Origin: SAR92 clade bacterium H455
GTDB taxonomy: Bacteria; Pseudomonadota; Gammaproteobacteria; Pseudomonadales; Porticoccaceae
Reading direction: 5' to 3'
Length of the DNA: 64,000 bases
NCBI GenBank assembly: GCA_024802545.1
Contig: CP103416.1
Location: 2,480,001 to 2,544,000, forward strand
This document shows positions 16,720 through 37,008 of the stretch, piece by piece. Under the pieces are notes generated by a model. That model was not told the origin of the DNA. It searched no databases and was given only the letters and a program-made list of their open reading frames with translations. The stretch's first letter is position 1; every line of letters starts with the position of its first letter. The position numbers were made by a program, and so were the translations under genes.

Positions 16720-17859
16720 ATGCCCGAAACCAATAAGCTCAAGGATCTCGCGAAAAAAGTTAAAGCCTGGGGCTTGGAGCTGGGTTTTCAGCAGGTGGCT
16801 ATTTCTCAACCAGATCTCAGTTCGGCATCGAAGAATCTTTTGAGCTGGCTGGATAAGGGCTATCAAGGTTCCATGCAGTGGATGGGAGAGCACGGGGAAA
16901 AACGTTACACCCCAGATCAGCTTGTAGAAAAAACCCTGCGGGTAATTTCAGTGCGCATGGACTATCTTGCCGACAACAATATGATCGCAGTTTTGAAGGA
17001 CGACAATAAAGCTTATATATCAAGATATGCGCTGGGTCGCGACTATCACAAACTGATTCGCAAACGCCTGGCTAAGTTAGGCAAAAAAATTGAAACCGAA
17101 ATAGATTTTCTCGGACTCAATCATCTGCAGTTAACCCAGCGACCCTTTGTCGACAGTGCTCCAGTAATGGAGAAACCCATTGCCGAACAGGCTGGGCTAG
17201 GTTGGATTGGTAAAAATACCCTATTACTTAACGATAAGGCCGGTTCTTGGTTTTTCCTTGGGGAGATTTATATTTCCCTGGAATTACCGGTTGATATCAG
17301 CGAGCAAACTAATAAGTGCGGCAACTGTCGCGCCTGTTTAAAAGTCTGCCCCACCAATGCCTTTCCCGAACCCTATGTGTTGGATGCGCGCCGATGTATT
17401 TCCTATCTGACTATCGAGAGCCAGGAACCGATTCCAAAAGAGTTGCGCCCGCTGATGGGCAATCGGGTATTTGGCTGCGATGACTGCCAGATTATCTGTC
17501 CCTGGAATCGCTATTCCTCGAAAACCAAAGAAATGGACTTTTCCCCGCGACACAATCTCGACAACTCGGATTTAGTGACGCTGTTTGAATGGACTGAAGA
17601 AGAGTTTTTGAACAACACCGAGGGTTCACCAATTCGCCGTATTGGCTATCAGCGCTGGCTGCGTAATCTCTCGGTGGGGTTAGGTAATGCGCCGGCTTCT
17701 CAGCGGATTGTCGATGCACTGAACAAAAGGGCCGACGACCCCTCTGCCCTGGTCCGTGAGCATGTTCTCTGGGCTATTGATCAACAGCAGGCCCTTGATA
17801 AGCCACAGGCGCCAGAGCAGCAATCAAGTGATAGCGGCGTAAAGTTTTTTAAAGCTTAA
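16720..17859 (+). CDS. queG: Epoxyqueuosine reductase QueG
   Basis: 379 residues. Reduces epoxyqueuosine to queuosine in the wobble position of GUN-decoding tRNAs, using cobalamin and two [4Fe-4S] clusters. The first cluster motif is [12 protein letters not shown], and a second cysteine group occurs in [11 protein letters not shown] with the upstream D-A-R-R-C-I-S-Y. The DUF1730 cobalamin-binding domain and the segment [11 protein letters not shown] are typical. A HEAT-like C-terminal tail is included. Converges with orn, overlapping by 11 bases. Confidence 0.95.
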
Positions 17860-18415
17860 TAAATACTTCGCGGTAATATTCCAACTCGCGGATCGAATCG
17901 TAGATATCATCCATGGCCAAATGACTGCCACGCTTTTTAAAGCCATTGGCCAGTTCCGGCTTCCAGCGCTGAACCAATTCTTTTAGGGTGCTGACATCCA
18001 AATTGCGGTAGTGAAAAAAGCGCTGCAAGTCGGTCATATAGTTGGCTAAAAAGCGTCGATCCTGACAGATCGAGTTGCCACACATGGGCGACTTGCCCGC
18101 TGGCACCCATTGACGCAAAAACTCAACCGTCTCCATCTCCGCTTCAGCCTCAGTCACAACACTCTGGCGTACCCGTTCGGTGAGACCTGAACCGCCGTGC
18201 TGGCGGGTATTCCATTCGTCCATACCGTCGAGCAACTCATCCGACTGATGCACTGCAATCATCGGACCCTCAGCCAGAACATTGAGGTCTTTGTCGGTGA
18301 CCACTGTGGCGATTTCAATAATCCGGTCATGTTCGGGACTCAATCCAGTCATTTCCAGGTCGATCCAGATTAAATTCTGTGGGTCAGTGTTGGCATTCGC
18401 AGCTACAGCGGTCAT
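17849..18415 (-). CDS. orn: Oligoribonuclease
   Basis: 188 residues. DEDDh 3'-5' exoribonuclease that degrades 2-5 nt nanoRNAs and pGpG, the product of c-di-GMP hydrolysis. The Exo I motif I-W-I-D-L-E-M-T-G has Asp19 and Glu21, and the central segment with D-R-R-F-L and the final H-x(4)-D arrangement H-L-A-M-D-D-I are visible. Divergent from rsgA. The queG/orn/rsgA arrangement is the one seen in Pseudomonas. Confidence 0.97.
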
Positions 18416-20426: not shown

Positions 20427-21395
20427 ATGAATCACCAAGCAGAATTATTTGTTGCTCTGCAACGATTACTTCCCCAGCACGCCCTCTCAAGACTGATTGC
20501 TAGAGCCGCTGAATCAAAGACGCCCTGGCTAAAAAACCTGCTGATCAAGCGCGCTATTGCCGCCTTCGACATCAATATCAGCGAAGCCGCGAGCAGTGAC
20601 ACGAATGACTACAAAAACTTTAATGACTTTTTTACTCGCGCGTTAAAAGATGGTGCACGACCAATGGATCAGGATTCAGACTCCCTGATCTCACCAGCCG
20701 ATGGTGCAGTAAGTCAGGCTGGCCCTATTACCCAGCAGCGCATTATTCAAGCCAAGGGCAGTGACTACTCTGCCGCTCGCCTGCTCGGCAATTCCAAAGA
20801 GGCCAAGCTCTACGAAGACGGCGCCTTTACGACTATCTATCTGTCACCCAAAGATTATCACCGCGTGCATATGCCAATTGCCGGCAGCTTAATTAGCAGC
20901 CGTTATATTCCTGGGGACCTTTTTTCCGTCAATGACAAAACCGCTCAAGGCCTTCCCGGCCTATTTGCACGCAACGAAAGGCTTGTCTGTCAGTTTGATT
21001 CGGAACTGGGGCAATTTGCTCTGGTCTTTGTCGGGGCCATGTTGGTCGCCGGCATAGAAACAGTCTGGGGCGGATTTGAAACCCCTGGGCGCGGTGCTGT
21101 GCGCGACGCGGATTTTTCCGACCGTAATCTACACTTTGATAAAGGGGAAGAGATCGGACGCTTTAAGTTTGGCTCAACGGTTATTCTGTTATTTCAAAAG
21201 GATAAAATTGATTGGCAAGATTGGTTTATTCCTCAAGCCGCTGTGCGGATGGGTGAAAAAATCGCCAGTTTTAAAAAACAAGTTAACCGAGCAGACGCTG
21301 TTTTAAGGCGGCGAAAAAACCATTATTCGGGCCTGACTGACGCTGGTTTTGTGCCAATAGTCCGCCATTTGCGGAGAATGAAAAGGGCTTGGTGA
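20427..21395 (+). CDS. psd: Phosphatidylserine decarboxylase proenzyme
   Basis: 322 residues. Converts phosphatidylserine to phosphatidylethanolamine at the inner membrane. The self-cleavage triad is visible: Asp92 (P-A-D-G-A-V), His147 (Y-H-R-V-H-M-P) and Ser250 in F-G-S-T. Cleavage between Gly249 and Ser250 would create the pyruvoyl alpha chain. The conserved fold seems to end near residue 281 (M-G-E-K-I-A-S-F). The last 40 residues are basic and are encoded on the DNA opposite the end of the HD-GYP gene, a tail-to-tail overlap of 113 bases. Confidence 0.95.
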   Translation: MNHQAELFVALQRLLPQHALSRLIARAAESKTPWLKNLLIKRAIAAFDINISEAASSDTNDYKNFNDFFTRALKDGARPMDQDSDSLISPADGAVSQAGPITQQRIIQAKGSDYSAARLLGNSKEAKLYEDGAFTTIYLSPKDYHRVHMPIAGSLISSRYIPGDLFSVNDKTAQGLPGLFARNERLVCQFDSELGQFALVFVGAMLVAGIETVWGGFETPGRGAVRDADFSDRNLHFDKGEEIGRFKFGSTVILLFQKDKIDWQDWFIPQAAVRMGEKIASFKKQVNRADAVLRRRKNHYSGLTDAGFVPIVRHLRRMKRAW

Positions 21396-22731
21396 TCAGC
21401 AAATTGAGCATCTTTTCATCGACACCCAGGCTCTCCGAGTCGATATCTTTAACTATCGCTAATTTGGCCACATCGTAGGCTCGCCGTGTGCCAAATTGTT
21501 GTAGCTGAGTGCGAGCCTTATCTTGATTTTTAAGATCGACAAAAATATAGTTCTCGGGATTAGCCTTGCCATCAACCGAGTCGAATACTGCGAGCCTCGG
21601 TGACAATCTCGACTTAGGGTTCTGTTCAATCACCATACCCTGATCACCAGTGGTTAATTCCACCACGGTTCCAGCGGGATAGAGCCCCACTGACTGAATA
21701 AATTCAACTACCAAATCCTCAGCAAAGGCATGGCCTCGCAGCTCATAGAGCCTACCGGTAGCTTTAGAAGGTGTTAGCACCGCCGATACTTCACGGGGAT
21801 TACAGAGACGATCAAACTCAGAGGCTATGCCGACAATCGCGGCCAAGAACGGAATGCGCTGACCGCTGCATCCTTTGGGAAATCCACTGCCATCGAAACG
21901 CTCACAGTGGAACTTAATAATATTCATTACTCGCCGGTTATCAAAATCAGACTGCCTTAGCTTTTCTAAACTGGCACTGACAAAACCGCGGTATTCTGCC
22001 TCTTCTTTTTCGTTGCGATCTGACTTGCGCAATAGGCTTCGATCCATGCCAGACTTGCCAATGTCTTTTAACAATGCGGCGAGACAGAGGTCTTTTAGCT
22101 GATCTAACTCAAGACCAATATGGCGCGCAAACTGAGTCGCCCAAAGAGCGGAACGGATACTGTGGTCGTGGGTATGTCGATCCTTAGCGCGCAGTTGCAA
22201 TAACCAGGTGAAGGCATCGGGACAGCGGACAACGCTATCCACCATATCATCCACTGATTGCTGTAATTGTTGGAGATTAAACTGTCCACCTTTGGTGATT
22301 TGACGAGTGGCAACACTGAGGCAACCGACCAAATTGTTCATCACTCTTCGGGCGGCGGGCATCTCTTTTGAGAGCTCGACAGTTTTTCGATAGATATCTG
22401 GTTTGATCACAAAGCTGCGCGGTGCGGCAAGCTGGCGATTGTCCATTAAACCGCGAACAATCGGATTGATATCTTGAGCTTTGTTGCGAAGGTCATTGTT
22501 GAACTGTCGGCTACCGGCAGCTGGACTTTTCAAATCCAGTGGTGAGATACCTTTGGAGATATCTATATAGATGTAGTCACAATAGGCTTTGACGCGGGAC
22601 GCATCAGCGGCACTTTTAATCAAAAAACCCTGTATCGGGAATGGCGTCTCCGCCCATGGTTTGTCGAGTGCGGAAACAAACATTCCCACTTCAAGTTCAT
22701 GAATAAAGACTTTAAGTTGCTGTAATGACAT
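21283..22731 (-). CDS. Degenerate HD-GYP domain protein with DUF3391 N-terminus
   Basis: 482 residues. DUF3391 domain (about 3-130), then an HD-GYP-like domain (about 170-345), then a C-terminal extension. Active HD-GYP proteins hydrolyse c-di-GMP with a bi- or tri-nuclear metal centre. Here the H-D pair reads K-D (L-L-K-D-I-G-K, Lys222), the second histidine pair reads H-C (F-H-C-E-R-F-D-G-S-G-F-P, 274-285), and GYP is G-F-P. The late metal Asp appears as Ser (I-A-S-E-F-D, 302-307). His190 and Asp223 remain. By eye several ligands are lost, so hydrolysis is doubtful. It may bind c-di-GMP or act through protein contacts. Confidence 0.88.
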   Translation of the reverse strand: MSLQQLKVFIHELEVGMFVSALDKPWAETPFPIQGFLIKSAADASRVKAYCDYIYIDISKGISPLDLKSPAAGSRQFNNDLRNKAQDINPIVRGLMDNRQLAAPRSFVIKPDIYRKTVELSKEMPAARRVMNNLVGCLSVATRQITKGGQFNLQQLQQSVDDMVDSVVRCPDAFTWLLQLRAKDRHTHDHSIRSALWATQFARHIGLELDQLKDLCLAALLKDIGKSGMDRSLLRKSDRNEKEEAEYRGFVSASLEKLRQSDFDNRRVMNIIKFHCERFDGSGFPKGCSGQRIPFLAAIVGIASEFDRLCNPREVSAVLTPSKATGRLYELRGHAFAEDLVVEFIQSVGLYPAGTVVELTTGDQGMVIEQNPKSRLSPRLAVFDSVDGKANPENYIFVDLKNQDKARTQLQQFGTRRAYDVAKLAIVKDIDSESLGVDEKMLNLLITKPFSFSANGGLLAQNQRQSGPNNGFFAALKQRLLG

Positions 22732-22763
22732 ACAGTTTTTAGATCTCTCAGCGCTGTTAACAC

Positions 22764-22827
22764 AAAACCGAACCGTCTCGAAATGTAACGCTTTTACCGG
22801 TGTAAAAGCGTGCGTCGGTGCGGTTTT
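22764..22827. repeat. Nested palindrome downstream of hemE
   Basis: A perfect inner hairpin ACGCTTTTAC (22788-22797) / GTAAAAGCGT (22802-22811) with loop CGGT is enclosed by outer arms AAAACCG-a-ACCG (22764-22775) / CGGT-g-CGGTTTT (22816-22827). It fills the 128-base gap between the hemE stop and the HD-GYP start. It may end hemE transcription (the minus-strand outer arm ends GGTTTT) or regulate the HD-GYP gene. Confidence 0.55.
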
Positions 22828-22859
22828 AGTAAATATAGACTAAGAAAAGCTAGAGTAAA

Positions 22860-23918
22860 TCAGTACTTTGCGGAAAACTTGTGAACGGCATCAATAAACA
22901 CTTTCACATGGTCCGGATTAATATCCGGCGTAATACCATGGCCCAGATTAAAGATATGCCCGGGACCGGGGCCAAACCCTTTGAGGATAGCTTCAACCTG
23001 AGATTCGATCACTGCGGGATCGGCTCTTAAAACGGCCGGATCCATATTGCCCTGCAGGGCAACTCGATCGCCAACTCGGCCCTTGGCCGCGGCGATATCA
23101 GTGCTCCAGTCGAGACCCAGAGCGTGACAGCCTGTACCGGCCATCTTTTCAAGCCACAGACCACCGCCCTTGGTGAATAGAATCACCGGGACATCGCGAC
23201 CATCGTGATGGCTGATTAATCCATCGACAATTTTTTGCATATAGGCGAGGGAAAATTCTGCGTAAGCAGCGTGGCTCAGTGCGCCACCCCAGGTGTCAAA
23301 TATCTGCACTACCTGAGCGCCAGCTCGAATCTGAGCATTGAGATAATCAATCACCGACAGGGATAATTTTTCCAGTAGTTGGTGCATTAATTCAGGCTGG
23401 GTATAGAGCATGGTTTTGGCGCGAGCAAAGTCGCGACTGCTCTGACCTTCAATCATATAGGTAGCCAATGTCCAGGGACTGCCGGAAAAGCCGATTAGCG
23501 GCACACGACCATTGAGCTCACGGCGAATCATGGTCACTGCGTCGGTGACATAGGAGAGATCGCTGGCGGTGTCGATCACTTCAAGAGCTTCGATATCCGC
23601 CTCAGTTCTGACCGGCTTGCGAAACTTGGGGCCCTCTCCAGTTTCAAAATAGAGGCCCAATCCCATGGCATCGGGAATGGTTAAAATATCTGAAAATAGA
23701 ATTGCCGCGTCCATTTCATAGCGCTCTAGAGGCTGCAGCGTCACTTCACAGGCAAGTTCAGTGTTCTTGCACAAGCTCATAAAGTCGCCGGCCTGAGCTC
23801 TCACTGCTCGGTACTCAGGCAGATAACGGCCTGCTTGTCGCATCATCCATACAGGAGTGCGGTCAACAGGCTGGCGCATCAGCGCCTTGAGAAAGCGATC
23901 ATTCTTTAGTTCAGACAT
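22860..23918 (-). CDS. hemE: Uroporphyrinogen decarboxylase
   Basis: 352 residues, normal length. Decarboxylates the four acetate side chains of uroporphyrinogen III to coproporphyrinogen III in heme synthesis. The N-terminal signature [18 protein letters not shown], with the two substrate-binding arginines, and the second signature [12 protein letters not shown] are intact. It follows gltBD on the same strand by 88 bases, the gltB-gltD-hemE order seen in Pseudomonas. Confidence 0.98.
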
Positions 23919-24006
23919 TCAAATTCCAGAGTAATAAATTTAAGCGTTCTTTTTAAGGGCCATTTAGCTACAAGCTAATGTAGTCCACGCCAGTGAATAG
24001 CGTCGA

Positions 24007-25449
<1,443 letters not shown>

Positions 25450-25459
25450 CTAATCAACG

Positions 25460-28400
25460 CTATTGCGGGTTGTCATGGGCCTGAGCTAGAAGGCTATTCA
25501 GGGTGGCCGCTTTTGGCTTAACTAACCAAAACTTCGATGCGTAATCAGAAAAATTACTAATAAGCTCTTGTCCCCAGGCACTGCCAGTCTCTCTGACATG
25601 CTCGCGGATCATGTTTTTGAGGAACACTCGATGAGATTCCGTGGCCTCAGCCGTAATACGCTGAATATCCACCAGCTCCATATTGTAGCGATCGACAAAT
25701 TCACGCTCCATATCGAGGACGTAGGCAAAGCCACCGGTCATACCAGCGCCGAAGTTGTATCCAGCGGCTCCGAGTACGGCGACTATGCCACCAGTCATAT
25801 ATTCACAACAGTGATCACCAGCACCCTCGATTACGGCTGTGGCGCCTGAGTTGCGCACGGCAAAGCGCTCGCCGACTGTACCTGCTGCATGCAGACGACC
25901 ACCAGTGGCGCCATAGAGGCAGGTGTTGCCCATAATGGGTGTTTCGTTGGAGGCAAAACTACTGTCACTGGGTGGACGCAAAATAATTTTGCCGCCAGCC
26001 ATGCCCTTGCCAACATAGTCATTGGCATCGCCTTCAAGATAGAGTTCTAGGCCGCCAGCGTTCCAAACGCCGAGGGACTGCCCAGCAACACCTTTCAGGT
26101 TCAATCGAATCGGCGCGGCTGACATGCCAGTGTTGCCATAGCGCTTGGCTATTTCACCGGACAGTCGAGCACCGATGGAACGGTCACAGTTATTGACTGT
26201 AAAATCGAATGTGCCACCACTCTGAGACTCAATAAATGGCAGTGTCTGCTCAACCATTTTTTCTGCCAGTAACCCCTTATCTAGAGGATTGTTTTTCGGC
26301 TCTGAACAGGTCTGAGGCTTGCCGTCTAGTTCTGGGCGCACTTCAAGCAGCGGTGAAAGTTCTAAATGCTGCTGCTTGCTGGTTTCACCAGGCAAGGCCT
26401 CTAATAGGTCAACGCGACCAATCAACTGTTCCAGTGAGCTAATACCCAACACGGCGAGCCACTCGCGAGTTTCCATGGCAATAAACTTGAAGAAGTTAGT
26501 CGCCATAGCTACGGTGCCGCGATAGTGATCATTGCGCAGACGCTCATCCTGAGTGGCTACGCCAGTGGCGCAGTTATTCAGGTGACAGATACGCAGATAC
26601 TTGCAACCCAGGGCAACCATGGGTCCGGTGCCAAAGCCAAAGCTCTCAGCACCTAAAATAGCGGCTTTAATCACATCCAAACCAGTTTTTAGACCACCAT
26701 CGGTCTGCACCCGAACCTTGCTGCGCAAATCATTGGCGCGAAGAGTCTGATGGGTCTCGGTGAGACCTAACTCCCAGGGCGATCCAGCATAGCGAATCGA
26801 ACTCAGTGGACTCGCGGCAGTACCGCCATCGTAGCCAGAGATGGTAATCAGATCAGCGTAGGCCTTAGCCACACCAGCTGCAATAGTACCTACACCTGGG
26901 CGCGACACGAGCTTCACAGAGACCAGAGCACTGGGATTGACCTGTTTTAAGTCAAAAATTAGCTGGGCCAGATCTTCAATCGAATAAATATCGTGATGTG
27001 GTGGTGGTGATATCAATGTCACACCGGGTACAGAGAAGCGTAGTCGCGCAATTAGCTCATTGACCTTGCCGCCAGGTAGCTGTCCACCTTCGCCGGGCTT
27101 AGCGCCCTGAGCAACTTTAATCTGCAGTACTTCGGCACTGGATAGATAGGCTGGCGTGACACCGAAGCGTCCGGAAGCGATCTGCTTAATTTTCGATGAT
27201 TTGATCGTGCCATAACGCGCAGGATCTTCGCCGCCCTCACCAGAGTTAGAGCGCCCACCCAAAGTATTCATGGCCTCTGCCAGTGACTCGTGAGCCTCAG
27301 GAGAGAGTGCACCCAGGGACATACCTGCAGAGTCAAAGCGCTTGACGATATCTGCCATAGGCTCAACTGATTCAATATCTATGGGTGTGCAGGTGTCGCT
27401 CAATTTGAGCAAGTCACGGAGCGAAGAAACAGGCCGAGTATTCACCAGCCGCGCATATTCGGTATACGCTTTGTAATCACCGTTCTGAACTGCACTGTGC
27501 AGGGTCTGCACTACATCTGGGTTATAGGCGTGATACTCCTGACCATGCACATATTTCAGCAGGCCGCCGGGCTCGATAGGCTTGCGCAGCTTCCAAGCAA
27601 GTTTTTTAAGGGCAGACTGATCAACCTCGATATCGTCAAAAGTGGCGCCTTCAAGACGACTTACAAGACCGGGGAAACAGAGATCGATTACTTCAGTGCT
27701 GAGACCAATAGCTTCAAATAACAGAGCCCCGCGATAGGAGGCGATGGTTGAAATACCCATCTTCGACAGTATTTTTAACAGGCCTTTATTGATGCCTTTG
27801 CGGTACTGTTTAAATGCGGTATCCACGTCCACCAGCAACTCGCCGCTGGCGATCAAGTCACAGAGCACATGATAGCTGAGATAGGGATAAACCAAGGACG
27901 CACCGCAGCCAATTAGGGCGGCAATTTGGTGAGAGTCGCGAGCATAACCAGTACTGGCAATGATATTCGCATCAGTGCGCAGACCCTGATCGATCAGATA
28001 GTTGTGCACAGCACCCACAGCCAGCAGGATATGGATCGGCTGTTTTTCAGGGCTGATGTTGTGATCTGAGAGGATACAGATAACCGCACCGCCGCGAACC
28101 GCGTCTGCTACTTCAACACAGACGCGTTGAATCGCTTGTTGCAAATTCTCTTCCGTCGCATCGTAGTTCAGGGCAAATTTAGAGACCGGAAACTGCTCAA
28201 ATTCATTGCGCTTAAGAGCATAGTATTTGCGCGGTGAAAGCACCGGGCTAGATAGGCCAATTCGCGCACCCAAATAGGGATTCTCAGCGAAGACACTCTC
28301 TTCCTGTCCGAGCTCCACACCCAGTGACATAACTATGGCTTCGCGCAGTGGATCAATCGGCGGATTAGTCACCTGAGCAAACTGCTGACGGAAATAATCA

Positions 28401-29917
28401 AACAAATTGCGCTGCTTCTTGGACAACACTGCCATGGGAATATCGTCACCCATAGAGCCGGTCGCCTCTTGACCGCCTTCGGCCAACGGACGCAACACCT
28501 GATCTCGCTCTTCAAAGGAGACCTGGAACATTTTCATATAGCATTTGATTTGATCGCGGCTGAGAGAACCTTCAATCTCGATACTGTCCCGATCAAAACT
28601 CGACTGGATAGCGTAGCGACCCTCTTTAAGCCACTTTTTATAAGGATGACGAGCAGCCAGCTGATCTTCAATTTCATCGCGGAAGAAGATTTTTCCTTCC
28701 TGAGTATCAATCGAGAGAATATCTCCGGGCCCAAGACGCCCCTTGGCCACCACATCTTCGCTGCGGTAGTCGTAAACGCCGATCTCTGATGCCACTGTAA
28801 TTACATCATCATTGGTGATCACGTAGCGCGAGGGGCGCAGACCATTGCGATCAAGGGTACAAACGGCAAAGCGGCCATCGGTAATAACCAGACCGGCCGG
28901 ACCATCCCAGGGTTCTTGATGCATGGAAAGATAGTCGTAGAGTGCGCGATGATCTGGATTGCGATCTTCAACATTCTGCCAGGCTGGCGGAACCAGAGTT
29001 CGCACAGCAAGGTGCAGATCCATTCCTCCGGTAACTAGCATTTCAAGCATGTTGTCGAGGCTGGATGAGTCTGAACCAGTGCGATTAACCAACGGCGCAG
29101 CTTCAGCCAGATCGGGTAATAAATCAGTTTGATACTTTGGTGTCCGTGCAACAGACCAGTTGCGATTACCCATAATGGTGTTGATCTCACCATTGTGCGC
29201 CAACATTCTAAATGGTTGCGCCAGTGGCCACCGAGGCATGGTGTTAGTGGAAAAGCGCTGGTGAAATACACAGATTGCAGTTTCCAGACGTTCATCCGCC
29301 AAATCCAAATAGAATCCCGGCAGATCCACAGGCATCATAAGCCCTTTATAGCTGAGTACATTGGTGCCAAGGCTGGCAATATGGAAGCTGTCATCTTCAG
29401 TCAGCTGCTTCTCAGCCTTGCGACGGCCCATAAATAAACGCGCACTAAAGCGCTTCTCATCAGTGATATCACCTGGACCGACAAAAATCTGCTCAAAAGC
29501 TGGAAGCGACTCAATCGCAATCGGGCCCAAGCAGTTATTATCAGTGGGGACTTCGCGCCATGCGAGAATTTGCAGGCCCTGGGCGCTAAGTTCTTGTTCG
29601 AGAATATTTTTCGCTGCACTGCGCTGCTGCTCGTCAGTATTAAGCATAACGGCACCGACCGCATAGAGCTCAGGCAGCTCTATTTGTTGACTATCTCGCA
29701 ACACGGTGCGCAGAAAGCTATCGGGCTTTTGCATCAACAGACCGCAGCCATCGCCGGTTTTACCGTCGGCAGCAACACCGCCGCGGTGAGTCATACAGGT
29801 GAGTGCCTGAATCGCGTTCAGCAGCAACTTATGGCTTGTCTTACCCTTAATATGAGCAATTAAACCAAAACCGCAGTTATCTTTAAAATCGTCAAGCCGA
29901 CATAAGCTCTGAGCCAT
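25460..29917 (-). CDS. gltB: Glutamate synthase large subunit
   Basis: 1485 residues. The mature N-terminal nucleophile is Cys15 (D-N-C-G-F-G-L-I), preceded by a 14-residue propeptide. The class II glutaminase domain runs to about 420. Central and FMN-binding synthase domains follow, with the [3Fe-4S] motif C-x5-C-x4-C ([12 protein letters not shown]). The C-terminal beta-helix domain has repeated G-x-x-G-x-x-x-G turns. Makes two glutamates from glutamine and 2-oxoglutarate, so ammonia assimilation probably runs by GS-GOGAT. A promoter is predicted about 140 bases upstream. Confidence 0.98.
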
Positions 29918-30061
29918 AAATAAACTCTAAGTAAAATTCCAAGTTAAACCCTTCACGCAGCGCGGTTCCAGCGCCGAGATGCGCTAATAAAACAGCACTG
30001 AAGAGCGAAGTGATAATAGCCTTGAGAAACGCAGATAGGCTAAACAGACAAAGTGAGACGC

Positions 30062-30090
30062 ATTCTACACATTGCCAAACTATACGACAA
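30062..30090 (-). promoter_or_regulatory. Predicted sigma-70 promoter of gltBD
   Basis: On the minus strand TTGTCG (30090-30085) and TAGAAT (30067-30062) are separated by exactly 17 bases. Transcription would begin near 30054 and leave a leader of roughly 140 bases before the gltB ATG. I see no named riboswitch in that leader; a 70-codon open frame crosses it (29892-30104) but has no family resemblance and runs into gltB. Confidence 0.5.
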
Positions 30091-30165
30091 TTGTCTCTAC
30101 GCACTAAACGGCGGGATGGAGCCTAATTGAGACGAAAAAGTCGCACAATATACGACCCTAGGCTT

Positions 30166-31260
30166 TCAACTAGCAGTGCAGGCTTTGATCAATACCTGAT
30201 TGAGGTGATCAATTGAAAACTGATCGGTAACACAGGCTTCGCCGAGGTGCTTTAGCAGAACTAGGCGCAATTGCCCGTCGAGGACTTTCTTATCCCTAAG
30301 CATTAACCGGATAAAATCTTCCGCTGCCATATCAGCAGGCGGCGTCACAGGCAGTGAGCAGCGCTTTAACAGCGCTTTAGTTCTGCTTAAATCCGCTTCC
30401 GGCAGATCTCCACTAATCACCGATAACTCTGCAGCCATAACCATTCCCGCAGCTACGGCTTCGCCGTGAATCCACTGCTTGTAGTTCTGGAAGGTTTCAA
30501 TGGCGTGACCAAAGGTGTGGCCTAAATTTAAAATAGCCCGGATGCCCTGCTCGGTTTCATCTTCGGCAACAATCCGCGCCTTGCTCACACATGATAGCTC
30601 TACGGCGTAAGCCAGTGCCTGTTTGTCACGCTGCAATAATAGGTCGACATTGTTTTCCAACCACTGGAAAAACACAGCATCGACAATCAGGCCGTACTTT
30701 ATAACTTCGGCGAGACCAGCATGAAATTCTCGATCAGGCAGCGTAGACAACGTATCTGTATCAATAATCACCGCCTGAGGCTGATAGAAAGCGCCGATCA
30801 TGTTTTTGCCCATGGCATGATTGACCGCGGTCTTGCCACCCACAGACGAATCAACCTGTGCCAGCAATGTGGTTGGAATCTGAATAAAGGGCACACCGCG
30901 CTGATAACAGGCGGCGGCGAAGCCGGTCATATCACCCACCACACCGCCACCTAGAGCAATCAGCGTGGTCTTGCGATCATGATGGCCGCCAATTAGCTGA
31001 TCAAAGATAAGGTTGAGGGTGTCGAGATTTTTGTGTTGTTCACCGTCGGCGAGAATAACGCTATCGACCCGTTTGTCCATCAACTGGCCCTTGAGTAACT
31101 CAAGATAGAGGGGAGCAATCGTCTCATTGGTAACAATCAGGACTTTTTTACCGCCAATGTAGCTGGCTATATCGGTATTGCGAATTTCATCGGAACCAAT
31201 AAAAATAGGGTAGGAACGATCACCCAATGAAACCTGAACTTGTGTTGATTTTGAGGCCAT
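30166..31260 (-). CDS. aroB: 3-dehydroquinate synthase
   Basis: 364 residues. NAD- and metal-dependent conversion of DAHP to 3-dehydroquinate, second step of the shikimate pathway. NAD-binding [11 protein letters not shown], the A-A-C-Y-Q-R-G segment, and metal ligands in the [14 protein letters not shown] and W-I-H-G-E-A-V segments are all visible. Follows aroK by 71 bases. In E. coli and Pseudomonas a damX-type gene comes next; here the 249 bases to gltB hold none. Confidence 0.97.
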
Positions 31261-31331
31261 GAATCACTCTGAATGAGGCTAGTAAAGGGCGCGGCCACGG
31301 AGTGACGACGAAAAATAGACTCAGAAGTTTA

Positions 31332-31850
31332 TCATAGGGAAGAAACAGCTTCAGCCAGTTTCTTTGCCAACTTGAGGGGCTGTGTCGACCCTGAGGGGAA
31401 GACTAGGTCAGCGACTTGATTGTAAAGCGGGCTGCGGGTTTCTATAAGTTGCTTGATCACCGCTTCACGATCATCAACCTGGAGTAATGGCCGGGTTTTG
31501 TCACGCTTGGTGCGTTCAACTAACTGTTCGAATGTGGCAGATAGGTAGACTACCAGACCACTGGCCTGAAGGATTCCACGATTGTCGCCGCTAAGGACTA
31601 TTCCACCCCCGGTGGCTATAACTTTTGGCTGCTTATCGGCCACCAGATCAACCAACACCTTGCTCTCGCGCTCACGAAAACCGGCCTCACCTTCCATATC
31701 AAAGATCCATTGAATATCGGCGCCAGCGCGGGCCTCAATTTCTGAATCCACATCGATAAAGGACAGCCCCAGCAATCCTGCCAGGTGCTTGCCTATAGTG
31801 GTTTTGCCAGCACCCATGGGGCCAACGAGAAAAATATGTTGTGATTTCAT
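31332..31850 (-). CDS. aroK: Shikimate kinase I
   Basis: 172 residues. Phosphorylates shikimate at O3. Walker A G-P-M-G-A-G-K-T-T-I-G-K at 10-21, the substrate-binding D-V-D-S-E-I-E-x-R, the Walker-B-like A-T-G-G-G-I-V motif and the lid R-D-K-T-R-P-L-L are present. The start overlaps the pilQ stop by four bases (ATGA), so its translation is coupled to that of the type IV pilus secretin, a conserved gammaproteobacterial arrangement. Confidence 0.97.
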   Translation of the reverse strand: MKSQHIFLVGPMGAGKTTIGKHLAGLLGLSFIDVDSEIEARAGADIQWIFDMEGEAGFRERESKVLVDLVADKQPKVIATGGGIVLSGDNRGILQASGLVVYLSATFEQLVERTKRDKTRPLLQVDDREAVIKQLIETRSPLYNQVADLVFPSGSTQPLKLAKKLAEAVSSL

Positions 31851-34159
31851 CGATCCAGCAAATTATCGTCAATTATTTTAGGTGTTATGAAAATAAGTAT
31901 TTCACGTTTTTCAATATTGCGCAGGTCATTTCGAAACAACTTACCCAACAAGGGTAAATCACCCAGCAATGGTACCTTCTCTGTGCCATTAACTTCTTCT
32001 GTTTGAAAAATACCCCCTAATACCAGTGTTTGCCCGTTGCCGACCAATGCCTGAGTTTCGATCTGAGTAATATCGATCGACGGCTCTCCTGTGGGAGTAA
32101 ACGCACCTACTGAATCCTGTGAAACCAGCAAATCCATGATAATTCTATTGTCCGGTGTGATCTGAGGGGTAACCTCTAACTGTAACACCGCTTCCTTGAA
32201 TTCTATGCTAGTTGCGCCGCTCGAGGTAGCCTTTTGGTAGGCTATTTCAGTTCCCGATTTAATCACCGCTTGCTGCTTGTCGCCGGTAAGTACTTTTGGC
32301 TGGGAGACAATTTCGCCAAAGCCATCGGACTCTAAGGCGCTCAGCTCTAGATCAATGAGGAAATTATCGGTTAGGTAACCAAGACTGAAAGAACCGGTGG
32401 GATTGGCGACACCGAGATCTACCGCCAAGCTGTCACCCAAGCCAAAGTCAAAAGCTCTGGTATAGGTCGTTGGGCCATCATCACCACCCCCCGGCACCCC
32501 ATCAGCACCGTTATCCGTTTCTATCTCATCAGCAGAATAAGTGAAACTTTCCTTTACACCAGCACCAGGTGCAAGCCCAGATCTACGCCCGGAAAAACCC
32601 AGAGTTCGATCACCAAATGCACTGCTAGTGGTACTACCAGCAAGCTTATCAATACCTGCCAAGCCCCAGGTTACGCCGAGCTCTTTTTTGAAGTCGGTAT
32701 TGGCAATGACAATACGCGCTTCAATTAATACCTGCTTAATCGGTACATCAATTTCATCGATCAGACGTTTAAAAGCATTAATCTTATCTTCTGTATCGGT
32801 GAGAATGATTGTGTTAGTGCGCTCGTCGACTATGGCACTGCCGCGCTCTGACAAGATAGTGGTAGTGGCGTTGCCTTCACGACCGCCACCACTGGACTGA
32901 CCCTCATCGCTGCGGCTGGCGGTAAACAATTCAAAAATTTCTGCGGCGTCAGCATATTTAATCCGCACAAAAGTCGTTTCCAGTGGGGCTAATTCCTGAA
33001 GCTGTTTGTTGGCCTCAACCTGCAGGCGCTCCTGCTCGGCAATTTCAGCTGCTGGCGCGACCATCAGAACATTGCCTTCCTGACGCTTATCTAGGCCCTT
33101 GGCTTTAAGAATAATTTCCAGAGCCTGATCCCAGGGCACATCATCCAACCACAGCGTAATATTACCCGTGACCGTGTCACTGGCCACCAGGTTCAGTGAG
33201 GTGAATTCAGCGATAATTTGCAGTACTGAGCGCACCTCAATATCTTGAAAATCCAGAGTTAAACGCTCGCCACTAAAGGCAAACTTTTTCGATTGCTCCT
33301 CAACTTCAGCATCGGTGAGCGGCTTGATATTAACCACATATTGACCATCGGCTTGATAGGCGAGATAGTCATATTGCCCAGAGGCGTCGATAGTCACAGT
33401 GGTAGTGGTGCCCTCTTGCTTGCTATCGATGGTCTTAACTGGCGTGGCGAAATCCACAACATCGAGACGCCTATCGAATTGATCGGGCAACTCAGTCTGA
33501 TAAAAAGACAGTTGAATCTGGTGATTGCTGCGATCAATATCCACATTAACCGAGGGCTGGCTAAGACTAATATGTATGCTACCTGAACCATCTTCGCCGC
33601 GACGGAAATCCACATCGGTGACAGCTAAAGCATTGTGCTTAAGCGCTGTAGTAACAGCTGTATTAGCAGTGCTAGATCCCTGTGAAAGAGCTACTTGAGA
33701 AGCAACTGCCGCCAGTGAATCAGACCGGCTTGATAAGTTGGTTTCAATACCAGTTCCAGCACCTGCGCGCACAGTAACGCTGTTATTGTCGCTGTCTATT
33801 TCAAAAGGTATGGATTGATTAAGATTAACTATAAGTCGCGTCCGGCTACCATCTGAAATAATCACAGCCTCATTGGCATTTTCAAAACCCAAGGCATATT
33901 TTTTTTGCGACAAACTGCTTTCGACTCCAGGAAAATCTACAACCAAACGTGCGGGATTGCCAATCTCATAGGCGTTGGTCTCGGGTGGCTGCTCGGAAAA
34001 CTGCAATCTGATCTCAAACTGATCTCCTTGAAGAGAAGCAAATTCAATATCTGTTACCTGAGTTGCTGCACCAGCAAGTCCCGGCAAAAGCGCCAATAAA
34101 AAATAGATGTTGCGTTTGATTCGACTGATCATTTTTTGTTTCCCTAGCGAGTTGCTCAT
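31847..34159 (-). CDS. pilQ: Type IV pilus secretin PilQ
   Basis: 770 residues. Signal peptide ends near A-L-L-P-G-L-A-G-A (translation may start at the first Met, overlapping pilP by four bases, or at M10). Two AMIN domains (about 35-130 and 180-275) bind peptidoglycan, then an STN/N0 domain (about 300-370), an N1 domain (about 395-475) with a Gly/Ser-rich loop, and the C-terminal secretin barrel (about 585-768) with the V-P-L-L-G-D-L-P-L-L-G-K-L-F signature. Forms the outer-membrane gate for the pilus fibre. Last pil gene of pilMNOPQ. Confidence 0.97.
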   Translation of the reverse strand: MSNSLGKQKMISRIKRNIYFLLALLPGLAGAATQVTDIEFASLQGDQFEIRLQFSEQPPETNAYEIGNPARLVVDFPGVESSLSQKKYALGFENANEAVIISDGSRTRLIVNLNQSIPFEIDSDNNSVTVRAGAGTGIETNLSSRSDSLAAVASQVALSQGSSTANTAVTTALKHNALAVTDVDFRRGEDGSGSIHISLSQPSVNVDIDRSNHQIQLSFYQTELPDQFDRRLDVVDFATPVKTIDSKQEGTTTTVTIDASGQYDYLAYQADGQYVVNIKPLTDAEVEEQSKKFAFSGERLTLDFQDIEVRSVLQIIAEFTSLNLVASDTVTGNITLWLDDVPWDQALEIILKAKGLDKRQEGNVLMVAPAAEIAEQERLQVEANKQLQELAPLETTFVRIKYADAAEIFELFTASRSDEGQSSGGGREGNATTTILSERGSAIVDERTNTIILTDTEDKINAFKRLIDEIDVPIKQVLIEARIVIANTDFKKELGVTWGLAGIDKLAGSTTSSAFGDRTLGFSGRRSGLAPGAGVKESFTYSADEIETDNGADGVPGGGDDGPTTYTRAFDFGLGDSLAVDLGVANPTGSFSLGYLTDNFLIDLELSALESDGFGEIVSQPKVLTGDKQQAVIKSGTEIAYQKATSSGATSIEFKEAVLQLEVTPQITPDNRIIMDLLVSQDSVGAFTPTGEPSIDITQIETQALVGNGQTLVLGGIFQTEEVNGTEKVPLLGDLPLLGKLFRNDLRNIEKREILIFITPKIIDDNLLDR

Positions 34160-34680
34160 TCTTCCATGGCCATTGTGCGCGGTCGGTTAATCCATCCGCC
34201 TTTACCGTCCGGAACGGTTTCGATAAGCTCGATCTCACGGCGATTTATATGCGTGATTAAGCCAAAATTTCTACCTAAATAATTGCCGTCTGTTACGCGA
34301 TGAACCTTGCCTCCACCATCGTCCACAAGCGCCCACATCGTATTACCTTTGGCCAGTATTCCGACCATGGAGAGAGATGTATAATTAATTAGTTCGAGGG
34401 GTTCTTTGGCTCTCGATTGATCGGGGGCCGACACCGCTTTACCCGAAATTTTTTCATCTCCAGTGATAATGGCTGGTGCCTCAAAAGGACTGCGCAATGC
34501 CAGGACAGAATAATTAAAGCGCTCCGCCGCTGGATATTCAGGAAGTGGCTCTATAACGCCCTGAGGTCTAGTGCGCGCATCGCTCATTTTCTTATCCAGA
34601 TCACTGTGCTGGCGGTCACTTGAACATCCCGCAAGACTGACCAAAGAGACTAAAGCTATTACTACAAAATGATTGCTCAC
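34156..34680 (-). CDS. pilP: Type IV pilus inner-membrane lipoprotein PilP
   Basis: 174 residues. Lipobox L-A-G-C near residue 19 after a short hydrophobic signal makes it a periplasm-facing lipoprotein. The C-terminal beta domain contains V-G-I-L-A-K-G-N-T-M-W-A-L-V-D-D-G-G and G-N-Y-L-G-R-N-F-G. PilP links the PilN-PilO dimer to the N0 domain of PilQ. ATGA overlaps of four bases join it to both pilO upstream and pilQ downstream. Confidence 0.95.
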   Translation of the reverse strand: MSNHFVVIALVSLVSLAGCSSDRQHSDLDKKMSDARTRPQGVIEPLPEYPAAERFNYSVLALRSPFEAPAIITGDEKISGKAVSAPDQSRAKEPLELINYTSLSMVGILAKGNTMWALVDDGGGKVHRVTDGNYLGRNFGLITHINRREIELIETVPDGKGGWINRPRTMAMEE

Positions 34681-35288
34681 TGTTCTGCCTCCGCTTTATA
34701 TCTGTAGGTCCGAGCATCGATCTGCATATTCAGGCGAGAGCCATCAGATTGCTTGATTACGTAATCATGGAGAGTAACTATGCGCGGCAGTGAAGCGACA
34801 CCACTGACAAAGGAGCCAAAGTCATGATAGTCGCCTGTGACATCTATTTTGATTGGCAACTCCACATAGAATTCTGAAATCCTTTCCGGCTGTAAATTGA
34901 TTGACTTCATCACTAGACCGCTGCCATAGGCAACCTCAGTAATATCTTCTAAGAGGCCGGGTACCTCTGTATCCTTGGGCAGTTGCTTGAGCAGTGCGCC
35001 AAAAGTTTCATCCAGCTCAATCATCTGCTGACGGTAAGCATCCAGATTAGCTGCGAGAAAGGCTTTACTCTGGTACTGCTGCAGTAACTCGCGCTCTTGG
35101 GCAACAGCTCGCTCAGTTAAAAGACTAATATCCTTGATCTTTAAAAAATAACCCAAGCCAATGATCAGCAACAGGATTGATGCGACTAAAACGGTTTTTA
35201 ATGCCGCAGGCCAAACGCCAATCTGCTGAATATCCAGATCGGCGAAGTCGATATCCTTAAGCTCATTTAGACTCTCTTTAAATGACAT
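34677..35288 (-). CDS. pilO: Type IV pilus alignment protein PilO
   Basis: 203 residues from the ATG at 35288, which has an AGGG Shine-Dalgarno about 8 bases upstream and gives the usual M-S-F-K-E-S-L-N-E-L PilO N-terminus. An in-frame TTG at 35339 would add 17 residues but has poor support. A single transmembrane helix (about 32-50) is followed by a periplasmic coiled coil (about 60-105) and a ferredoxin-like domain. Dimerises with PilN to form the inner-membrane alignment platform. Separated from pilN by 79 bases, the only sizeable gap in this operon. Confidence 0.93.
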   Translation of the reverse strand: MSFKESLNELKDIDFADLDIQQIGVWPAALKTVLVASILLLIIGLGYFLKIKDISLLTERAVAQERELLQQYQSKAFLAANLDAYRQQMIELDETFGALLKQLPKDTEVPGLLEDITEVAYGSGLVMKSINLQPERISEFYVELPIKIDVTGDYHDFGSFVSGVASLPRIVTLHDYVIKQSDGSRLNMQIDARTYRYKAEAEQ

Positions 35289-35340
35289 AACATCCCTGCT
35301 AATAATTTTGTTCTGTTGTCGTAATTTAAGTGCTAGCAAT

Positions 35341-35366
35341 CCTATTTAAGAGCCCTATTTAAGAGC
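35341..35366. repeat. Perfect 13-bp tandem duplication in the pilN-pilO gap
   Basis: CCTATTTAAGAGC occurs twice head to tail (35341-35353 and 35354-35366), one base before the pilN stop codon. The unit length is not a multiple of three and the repeat lies outside both coding regions when pilO starts at 35288. Confidence 0.9.
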
Positions 35367-35367
35367 T

Positions 35368-35940
35368 CTATTGAAGCGATCTTTCTGGTCCTGCTGGCGC
35401 AGGTCTCTCTATCTCCACCTGCAAATCAAAAACGCTACCCTGCTCACCCATTCTTGCATCATGCTGTACTCTGGTGAGATTTGAATTAGCGTATTTATGA
35501 GACATATCCAGATTTCTCATAAGGGTAGAAATGCGACTATTGGACTCGGAGTAACCAGATACTTTAAAGGTCGCTTCGCTGAGTTCCAGTGAGTCCAAAT
35601 AGGTGCCGTCGGGCACTGCGCGAACCAGTTCGTCAAATATTTTTACAATCTCAGAACGGTTACCCTGTAGATCCTGAATAACTTTCATTCTCGACAGCAT
35701 TTCCTGCTTCTTGTTTTTTAACTGGCTGATTTCGGCAACCTTTTTATCCATCTCAGCAATATTTGACTGCAGATAGCTGTTCCTTGAGTTCTGATTATCC
35801 AATTGGTTCTGAGCCAAAAAGACCCATAAAAGAACCAGCGCAAAACCGCTAAGGGCAGAGGCAATCAGCTTGCCGAGAAACGCTTTGCGCTGTAACTCAC
35901 GTGCTTCTTCCCGCCAGGGGAGTAGATTAATTGTCGTCAT
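35368..35940 (-). CDS. pilN: Type IV pilus alignment protein PilN
   Basis: 190 residues. The cytoplasmic N-terminus I-N-L-L-P-W-R-E is the conserved peptide that docks into a groove of PilM. A transmembrane helix at about 22-43 is followed by a periplasmic coiled coil (about 47-90) and a small alpha/beta domain. Assembles with PilO. Begins directly after the pilM stop codon with no intergenic bases. Confidence 0.96.
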   Translation of the reverse strand: MTTINLLPWREEARELQRKAFLGKLIASALSGFALVLLWVFLAQNQLDNQNSRNSYLQSNIAEMDKKVAEISQLKNKKQEMLSRMKVIQDLQGNRSEIVKIFDELVRAVPDGTYLDSLELSEATFKVSGYSESNSRISTLMRNLDMSHKYANSNLTRVQHDARMGEQGSVFDLQVEIERPAPAGPERSLQ

Positions 35941-37008
35941 TTAATCAAAACTCCTCATGGCTAAGCCCACGGCAAGCAGCATAGCTGGTGCATCATTAGC
36001 CAGGGCAGTTGGGTTGATTGACTTGTGCAATTGCATATTGGCAAAGGGGTTGGCCACCGCCGTCGGTAGACCTATAACCTGCTCAACTTCATCTACCAAC
36101 CCCTCCAGTGCCGAAACACCCCCGGCCAAGAAAAGCTGATCGACATAATTAAAGTGACTGGAGCTATAAAAAAATTGCAGTGAGCGAGTTATGTGTTGCA
36201 CTAGAGACTCTTTGAACGGTGCCAAGACTTCCGTGGCATAGTCTTCCGGCAGCCCCCCTTTGCGTTTTGCCTCTCCGGCTTCCTCCCAGGAGAGTCCGTA
36301 GCGCCGCTGAATTTCTTCGGTGAGCTCCTTGCCGCCAAACTGCTGCTCTCTACTGTAGATGATTTTTCCGTCCACCAGTACGGTAAAGCTAAAGACGCTG
36401 GCCCCTATATCGGCAATGGCAACCACCTGATCACTGACCTCGTCCAGCTGCCCCTCAATAAGCTTGTAGGCGCGCTCCACCGCAAAGCTCTCGACATCGA
36501 TGACTTTCGGATTGAAACCTGCCATCTCTATAGCCTGACGGCGATGTTCAACATTTTCTTGGCGACAGGCGGCTAACAGCACTCGGACTAAATCGGGATT
36601 GTTTTCGGCTTCGCCCAAGACATCGAAGTCGAAGGCCACTTCTTCCATTGGGTAGGGGATATATTGATCGGCTTCCACTTCGATTTGCATTTCCATCTGC
36701 AACTCAGTGAGACCCGCGGGTAATTCAATCTCTTTGGTAATCACCGAAGAGGAGGACACTGCTGCCACTATATCGGTGAGTTTGCTACCGGAGCGCTTTA
36801 CCACTGCGGCGATAGTCTCTGACAGGGCGTCGAGATCAGCTATATTTTTATCAACTATGGTATTTGGCGGCAGGGGAAGAACGCGGTAGGCCTCGACTTT
36901 AAAGCTGTCTCCGGCCTTGCTCAGCTCAATCAGCTTGACCGCTGACGAGGAAATATCCATTCCCAATATAGGCTTCGAGGGCTTGGCGAAAAAATCGAAA
37001 AAATCCAT
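35941..37008 (-). CDS. pilM: Type IV pilus assembly ATPase-like PilM
   Basis: 355 residues. Actin/FtsA-like cytoplasmic protein with the phosphate-1 motif G-M-D-I-S-S-S-A-V-K-L (16-26), the phosphate-2 region A-D-I-G-A-S-V-F-S-F and the adenosine motif L-A-G-G-V-S-A-L-E-G. Binds ATP and the PilN N-terminus, linking cytoplasmic events to the alignment complex. First gene of pilMNOPQ, divergent from mrcA across 239 bases. The same junction is found in Pseudomonas. Confidence 0.97.
   Translation of the reverse strand: MDFFDFFAKPSKPILGMDISSSAVKLIELSKAGDSFKVEAYRVLPLPPNTIVDKNIADLDALSETIAAVVKRSGSKLTDIVAAVSSSSVITKEIELPAGLTELQMEMQIEVEADQYIPYPMEEVAFDFDVLGEAENNPDLVRVLLAACRQENVEHRRQAIEMAGFNPKVIDVESFAVERAYKLIEGQLDEVSDQVVAIADIGASVFSFTVLVDGKIIYSREQQFGGKELTEEIQRRYGLSWEEAGEAKRKGGLPEDYATEVLAPFKESLVQHITRSLQFFYSSSHFNYVDQLFLAGGVSALEGLVDEVEQVIGLPTAVANPFANMQLHKSINPTALANDAPAMLLAVGLAMRSFD

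What the first reader, a model, noticed from the sequence alone, without database searches (positions are those of the whole stretch)
21283..22731. HD-GYP protein that has lost most of its metal ligands
The HD pair reads K-D (K222-D223), the H-H pair reads H-C (275-276), GYP is G-F-P, and the late metal Asp appears as Ser (304). His190 and the overall fold remain. Active HD-GYP phosphodiesterases need nearly all of these residues. This suggests a c-di-GMP binding or signalling pseudoenzyme fused to DUF3391. Retained conservation would imply a non-catalytic role. The sequence is within 5 kb of orn, which removes pGpG, the product of active HD-GYP enzymes.
Basis: partly seen in the sequence, partly recalled or inferred. 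Interest (0 to 1): 0.6.

Follow-up and report, generated by a model that had tools for sequence, protein, structure and literature searches.

The report
Conserved inactive HD-GYP signalling protein
This gene encodes a relative of the enzymes that destroy the bacterial messenger c-di-GMP; it has lost its metal-binding residues, one of them always replaced by lysine, yet it is conserved at the same place in many marine bacteria and disappears when the rest of the c-di-GMP system disappears, so it most likely senses the messenger or relays its signal rather than cutting it.

Summary
Observation confirmed. The gene (21283-22731, minus strand; DUF3391 + HD_5) keeps 3 of the 8 metal ligands of PmGH: H190, D223, H275. 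Four are replaced (K222, F250, C276, S304), and the E185 position is H186.

This is not decay. Fifty-seven distinct orthologues all read K-D, form one group in the tree (support 96) and mostly sit between hemE and a convergent psd. Pairwise dN/dS is about 0.04-0.10, like the neighbouring psd. The second-shell and ligand-contact residues D184, K226, E277, D307 and R313 are kept.

In the genus the gene was lost or broken several times, each time with loss or shrinkage of the EAL/GGDEF set: 15 of 15 carriers have two or more EAL domains, against 1 of 19 non-carriers. Flagellin shows no such link.

Best reading: a non-hydrolysing member of the c-di-GMP network, most likely a metal-free nucleotide receptor, with Lys222 where a metal ligand was. 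Nucleotide binding is inferred, not shown. The precedent is DvhD, a degenerate HD-GYP domain that binds c-di-GMP without metal and without hydrolysis. Nearness to orn is no evidence of coupling.

Verdict: a new variant (the "K-D" type) of a known kind, degenerate HD-GYP proteins.

The parts
21283..22731 (-). DUF3391-HD-GYP gene (482 aa), the 'K-D' pseudo-phosphodiesterase
   Evidence: orthologues
22270..22713 (-). DUF3391 domain, residues 7-154
   Evidence: Pfam PF11871, E 2.9e-17
21730..22188 (-). HD-GYP domain (HD_5), residues 182-334
   Evidence: Pfam PF13487, E 7.7e-20; AF2 model matches Bd1817, DvhD, PmGH and PA4781
22162..22164 (-). H190 (PmGH H189), metal ligand kept; 67 of 67 K-D rows
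22063..22068 (-). K222-D223 in place of H221-D222 (the HD pair); 67 of 67 K-D rows
21982..21984 (-).
21904..21909 (-). H275-C276 in place of H276-H277
21877..21885 (-). G-F-P in place of G-Y-P; Y in 28 of 67 K-D rows
21820..21822 (-). S304 in place of D305; always S or T (one A) in the K-D group
21793..21795 (-). R313 (PmGH R314, DvhD R650), c-di-GMP contact kept in 67 of 67 K-D rows
21286..21315 (-). basic, hydrophobic C-terminal tail (GFFAALKQRLLG type), absent from most less degenerate relatives
22860..23918 (-). hemE, upstream neighbour on the same strand (128 bp gap)
20427..21395 (+). psd, convergent neighbour, 113 bp overlap at the 3' ends

Best explanation
The protein is a pseudo-phosphodiesterase of the c-di-GMP network. 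Shown: most metal ligands are gone, the sequence and predicted model are HD-GYP, and the changed residues are fixed and under purifying selection. Strongly supported by established knowledge: it cannot hydrolyse c-di-GMP, because single alanine changes at H221, H250 or H277 already essentially abolish activity in PmGH. Inferred: the old active-site cleft still binds c-di-GMP (or a close relative) without metal. Lys222, near Asp223 and Asp184 where the metal cluster was, would supply the lost positive charge, and Arg313 would contact the nucleotide. Binding would shift the domain against the N-terminal helix and DUF3391 and change a partner interaction, as in DvhD. The partner is unknown; the output may be at the membrane, given the basic C-terminal tail.
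For: Ligand loss. One origin and invariant K222 in 57 distinct proteins from several families of the order, while sister groups vary at this position (L, M, F, S, A, C). Purifying selection: pairwise dN/dS 0.04-0.10, psd 0.04-0.09. Kept second-shell and contact residues D184, K226, E277, D307, R313. Conserved gene position. AF2 model pLDDT 83.7, with domain matches Bd1817 Z 25, DvhD with c-di-GMP Z 21.7, PmGH Z 19. Presence follows EAL domains: 15/15 carriers with two or more against 1/19 non-carriers. On the hemE+psd tree the losses in G009 and G025 go with EAL 0 and GGDEF 1, against EAL 5-6 and GGDEF 5 in their near relatives; the pseudogene in G028 goes with GGDEF 1 against 4. Precedent DvhD (PMC13090378); PmGH mutations (PMC4159591).
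Against: No binding was measured. Several c-di-GMP contacts of PmGH and DvhD are not kept: K317->S316 (variable in the group), Y285->F284 in over half the group, DvhD Y652->V315, K582->E244. Co-loss with EAL genes also fits a partner protein that never touches the nucleotide. G004 keeps the gene with only 2 EAL and 2 GGDEF domains. The EAL statistic is not corrected for shared ancestry; independent losses are few (three to five). The structure tool gave no coordinates, so the position of K222 rests on the alignment.
Confidence: 0.5

Rival explanations
1. A pure adaptor: the HD-GYP fold is only a protein-binding surface that controls other members of the network (EAL or GGDEF proteins, or the two less degenerate HD-GYP paralogues) without binding a nucleotide.
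For: RpfG uses its GYP region to bind GGDEF proteins, and ECA3548 lacks HD yet affects c-di-GMP processes (PMC4159591, PMC4212101). Several nucleotide contacts are not kept. Bd1817, the best fold match, is an inactive HD-GYP protein with a closed cleft. The basic C-terminal tail could be an interaction site.
Against: Residues expected to line the cleft (D184, H190, K222, D223, K226, H275, E277, D307, R313) are among the most conserved of the protein; a pure surface adaptor would not need this.
Confidence: 0.28
2. A receptor for another nucleotide, such as pGpG, 3'3'-cGAMP or (p)ppGpp.
For: HD-family pockets bind varied nucleotides (VIA matches include PgpH with c-di-AMP, Z 13.6, and PPX/GppA). 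DvhD also accepts cGAMP (PMC13090378).
Against: Presence follows EAL and GGDEF genes, which points to c-di-GMP or its product.
Confidence: 0.12
3. A residual or different enzyme using one metal bound by H190, D223 and H275.
For: Three ligands and the D183/K225/D308-type second shell are kept. Mono- and dinuclear HD enzymes exist (PMC4159591).
Against: H221, H250, H277 and D305 equivalents are all gone. H221A, H250A and H277A each essentially abolished PmGH activity. K222 would be expected to repel a metal. V. cholerae HD-GYP proteins without an intact HD motif were inactive (PMC4212101).
Confidence: 0.07
4. A decaying pseudogene.
For: Most ligands lost; truly broken in one relative (two TAG codons in G028); cleanly absent from several same-genus genomes.
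Against: Open over its full length in all but a few of the orthologues; dN/dS 0.04-0.10; substituted residues are themselves invariant across families.
Confidence: 0.02

Closest known systems
DvhD of Desulfovibrio vulgaris (PDB 9RBZ, 9RC0; PMC13090378)
   Same: Degenerate HD-GYP domain; HD pair and HH pair lost; keeps the equivalents of H189, K225, E278, R314; binds c-di-GMP without metal and does not hydrolyse it. Fold match Z 21.7, rmsd 4.9, 189 residues.
   Different: DvhD is a transmembrane dCache-PAS-HD-GYP protein with SQ and MN; ours is DUF3391-HD-GYP with K-D and H-C. DvhD does not keep D183, D222, H276 or D308; ours does.
Bd1817 of Bdellovibrio (PDB 3TM8)
   Same: Inactive HD-GYP with a DUF3391-type N-terminal domain (PMC12943098); best fold match, Z 25.
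   Different: Bd1817 keeps a di-iron centre and lacks the GYP tyrosine (PMC4159591); ours has lost most of the metal site.
PmGH (PDB 4MCW) and PA4781 (4R8Z), metal-binding HD-GYP phosphodiesterases
   Same: Same domain fold; H189, D222, H276, D183, K225, D308, R314 equivalents of PmGH kept.
   Different: E185, H221, H250, H277, D305 equivalents of PmGH lost.
'xD' DUF3391-HD-GYP proteins, including two paralogues in this genome
   Same: Same three-part architecture (DUF3391, HD-GYP, small C-terminal beta domain), about 30-37% identity.
   Different: They lack H221 but keep D222, H250, H276-H277 and nearly always GYP and D305, and they mostly end in a neutral or acidic C-terminus.

Membership tests
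HD-GYP domain family (fold and sequence) | Significant match to HD_5 / HD-GYP sequence models and fold | tested here: met
   PF13487 E 7.7e-20, over cut-off; Foldseek E down to 2.5e-9 and VIA Z 19-25 to solved HD-GYP structures
Active HD-GYP c-di-GMP phosphodiesterase | HD pair | tested here: not met
   K222-D223
Active HD-GYP c-di-GMP phosphodiesterase | H250, H276-H277 and D305 metal ligands | tested here: not met
   F250, H275-C276, S304
Active HD-GYP c-di-GMP phosphodiesterase | GYP motif | tested here: not met
   GFP here; GYP in 28 of 67 orthologue rows
Active HD-GYP c-di-GMP phosphodiesterase | c-di-GMP hydrolysis | not testable with these tools
   needs purified protein
DUF3391 proteins | PF11871 match | tested here: met
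   E 2.9e-17, 63.9 bits over a cut-off of 27.8
Degenerate HD-GYP c-di-GMP receptors (DvhD-like) | Loss of metal ligands with the fold kept | tested here: met
Degenerate HD-GYP c-di-GMP receptors (DvhD-like) | Conservation of nucleotide-contact residues | tested here: inconclusive
   R314/R650 equivalent kept in 67 of 67; Y285 mixed; K317, DvhD K582 and Y652 not kept
Degenerate HD-GYP c-di-GMP receptors (DvhD-like) | Measured c-di-GMP binding | not testable with these tools
   needs calorimetry or a structure

The most novel reading that the evidence does not exclude
A separate orthologous family of c-di-GMP receptors in which an invariant lysine has taken the place of a metal ligand, so that a metallo-phosphodiesterase pocket became a metal-free, lysine-based nucleotide sensor, fixed once and kept across several families of Pseudomonadales.
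Probability: 0.3. Interest if true: 0.6.

Novelty: new variant of a known kind. Interest (0 to 1): 0.42.

Why it matters
Degenerate HD-GYP proteins are common but little is known of what they do; DvhD, described in 2026, is a clear structural case of one that binds c-di-GMP. Here is a defined orthologous family with one origin, an invariant lysine in the HD pair, a fixed gene position and repeated independent losses that track the c-di-GMP network. That makes a concrete test possible in named carriers (Simiduia, Microbulbifer, Marinimicrobium), and shows intermediate forms (xD, then K-D or SQ) for how a metalloenzyme may turn into a receptor.

Tried and rejected
Chance or sequencing error: rejected, K-D in all 57 distinct orthologues. 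Ligands at shifted positions: none seen in MAFFT or phmmer alignments. Functional coupling to orn: not supported; same-genus genomes without the gene keep rsgA-rhodanese-psd next to hemE. A flagellar role: gene presence shows no clear link to flagellin (10/15 against 8/19, p 0.19), and the one-contig genome G018 carries the gene without flagellin. A strict type IV pilus role: G004 keeps the gene without a strong PilM match; the overall link is weak (p 0.047), although canonical PilM and the gene occur largely in the same lineages. A C-terminal amphipathic helix as a proven membrane anchor: the tail is basic (+3 against -2 in xD proteins), but its hydrophobic moment is only moderately above shuffled tails, so it is kept as a lead. 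Fold of the C-terminal beta domain: best Z 5.7 (MazF-like and SH3-like barrels), within the range of unrelated matches, so nothing is claimed. The relaxed-selection test on the broken copy in G028 showed no raised pN/pS, so that decay would be recent. Literature: no paper in the library links HD-GYP with Cellvibrionaceae; PA4958, recalled from memory as a possible Pseudomonas neighbour of psd, gave one paper that was not read and was not followed.

Full report
Observation. The minus-strand ORF 21283-22731 is open over 482 codons and matches DUF3391 (residues 7-154) and HD_5 (182-334). Aligned to PmGH, whose eight metal ligands are E185, H189, H221, D222, H250, H276, H277 and D305 (PMC4159591), the protein reads H186, H190, K222, D223, F250, H275, C276, S304. 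So three ligands are kept. The GYP motif is GFP.

Not decay. Searches in 56 relatives, 342 genomes of the order and the named genome collection gave 67 K-D rows, 57 of them distinct and unbroken. All 67 rows have K-D. The group is one side of a branch in a 129-row tree (SH-aLRT 96; one change needed, 42.5 in shuffles). In the group, C276 is C in 53 rows (R, K or A in the rest), S304 is T or S in 66, F250 is F in 59. D184 (65), H190 (67), E277 (67), D307 (67) and R313 (67) are kept; K226 is K in 58 and R in 7. At the H221 position the other groups vary widely (S, L, M, A, F, C), so K is a fixed substitution, not free drift. Pairwise dN/dS is 0.04-0.10 for this gene, 0.04-0.09 for psd and 0.02-0.04 for hemE over the genome pairs tested.

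Gene position. In 50 of the 57 distinct proteins both hemE and psd lie next to the gene (several of the other seven sit on short fetched stretches). The usual order is gltD-hemE-gene, then convergent psd, rhodanese, rsgA, with orn beyond. In the window the gene is the last of a run on the minus strand: pilM, pilN, pilO, pilP, pilQ, aroK, aroB, gltB, gltD, hemE, gene (ORFs; pilM, pilN, pilP and hemE confirmed by Pfam; pilO, pilQ, aroK, aroB and glt genes named from their sequence and order). Named carriers include Simiduia aestuariiviva, Microbulbifer species, Marinimicrobium, Marinibactrum halimedae and a Cellvibrio MAG. In same-genus genomes without the gene, hemE and psd are direct neighbours with no remnant detected between them.

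Structure. AlphaFold2 on a 78-row alignment gave mean pLDDT 83.7, with the HD-GYP region mostly above 90. Against solved structures it matches Bd1817 (Z 25.4, rmsd 2.8, 224 residues), c-di-GMP-bound DvhD (Z 21.7, rmsd 4.9, 189), PmGH (Z 19.1, rmsd 3.2, 181) and PA4781 (Z 18.6, rmsd 4.2, 193).

Link to c-di-GMP signalling. Among 35 same-genus genomes, 15 carry the gene (in G029 the last part is in another frame), one carries a copy with two stop codons (G028), and 19 lack it. EAL domains: all 15 carriers have two or more, against 1 of 19 non-carriers, Fisher p 9e-9, not corrected for ancestry. GGDEF counts are also higher in carriers (p 5e-6; p 0.003 among genomes at least 88% complete, non-carriers of at least 1.9 Mb). 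Flagellin shows no such link (p 0.19). On a hemE+psd tree the gene was lost or broken separately in G028, G009, G025, one larger clade, and probably the small-genome lineage G010. G009 has EAL 0 and GGDEF 1, while its sister G029 has 5 and 5. G025 has 0 and 1, against 6 and 5 in its near relative G021. G028 has EAL 3 and GGDEF 1, while its sisters have EAL 3-5 and GGDEF 4. The larger clade has EAL 0 (one genome 1) although some members keep 3-4 GGDEF domains. The gene therefore behaves as part of the c-di-GMP network.

Mechanism. Hydrolysis is very unlikely: H221A, H250A and H277A each essentially abolished PmGH activity (PMC4159591), and V. cholerae proteins without an intact HD pair are inactive (PMC4212101). 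The closest functional precedent is DvhD, with SQ for HD and MN for HH, which binds c-di-GMP without metal, does not cleave it, and changes shape on binding (PMC13090378). The window protein shares with DvhD the residues equivalent to H189, K225, E278 and R314, the last being a nucleotide contact in both PmGH and DvhD. Unlike DvhD it keeps D183, D222, H276 and D308 and has an invariant lysine at the H221 position. I infer that this lysine stands in for the lost metal charge, either by pairing with D223 and D184 or by contacting a phosphate. Against this, several other contact residues are not kept. A pure adaptor role is the main rival.

Known and new. Degenerate HD-GYP proteins are known (Bd1817, ECA3548, VC1087, VCA0895, DvhD). 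What is new here is a defined orthologous 'K-D' family with a single origin, fixed position, fixed lysine and co-loss with EAL genes. No paper found in the library describes it; most subscription papers are not in that library. It is rated a new variant of a known kind.

A wider pattern. Two paralogues in the same genome and most other DUF3391-HD-GYP homologues found here lack only H221 among the generally shared ligands, with L, M, F, A, S or C before the D, and otherwise keep D222, H250, HHE, nearly always GYP and the late D. A third group in Marinobacter and Hahella has SQ or similar, HRE, GFP and usually E at the late Asp. The tree suggests stepwise loss: HD, then xD, then K-D or SQ. The root is a midpoint root and the deeper forks are weakly supported, so the direction is an inference.

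Noticed in passing
G000 contig 1, 1673295-1677134 (L031): Two further DUF3391-HD-GYP-type genes flank an EAL gene; both lack only the first residue of the HD pair (LD, MD). Most homologues found in other genomes share this 'xD-GYP' pattern; whether such proteins are active is unknown.
   Followed up: partly
window 21283-37008: The gene is the last of a run on one strand starting with pilMNOPQ (type IV pilus), then aroK, aroB, gltB, gltD, hemE; pilM lies about 10-15 kb from the gene in other families too.
   Followed up: partly
window 21283-21395: psd has a C-terminal extension that overlaps the 3' end of the HD-GYP gene by 113 bp in antisense in the closest genomes (L001-L003); in most others psd ends earlier.
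   Followed up: partly
L057, L064, L086 (Marinobacter, Oleiphilaceae, Hahella): Another degenerate DUF3391-HD-GYP group (SQ or SH for HD, Y250, HR or HA for HH, GFP, E or D late), with its own conserved neighbourhood near an ABC transporter and a small lipoprotein-like gene.
   Followed up: partly
window 21286-21315 and orthologue C-termini: The K-D group has a C-terminal extension ending in a basic hydrophobic stretch (median net charge +3 in the last 15 residues; -2 in xD proteins), resembling short membrane-binding or docking helices.
   Followed up: partly
L015 (G028), L016 (G029): The orthologue has two in-frame TAG codons and Q at the H275 position in G028, and a frame break after about residue 403 in G029; recent decay or assembly error.
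   Followed up: partly
G000 contig 1, 1675285-1675689: The GGDEF part next to the paralogous HD-GYP genes has an in-frame TAG before its EAL domain.
   Followed up: no
window 16720-18415: queG and orn are convergent and overlap by 11 bp at their 3' ends.
   Followed up: no
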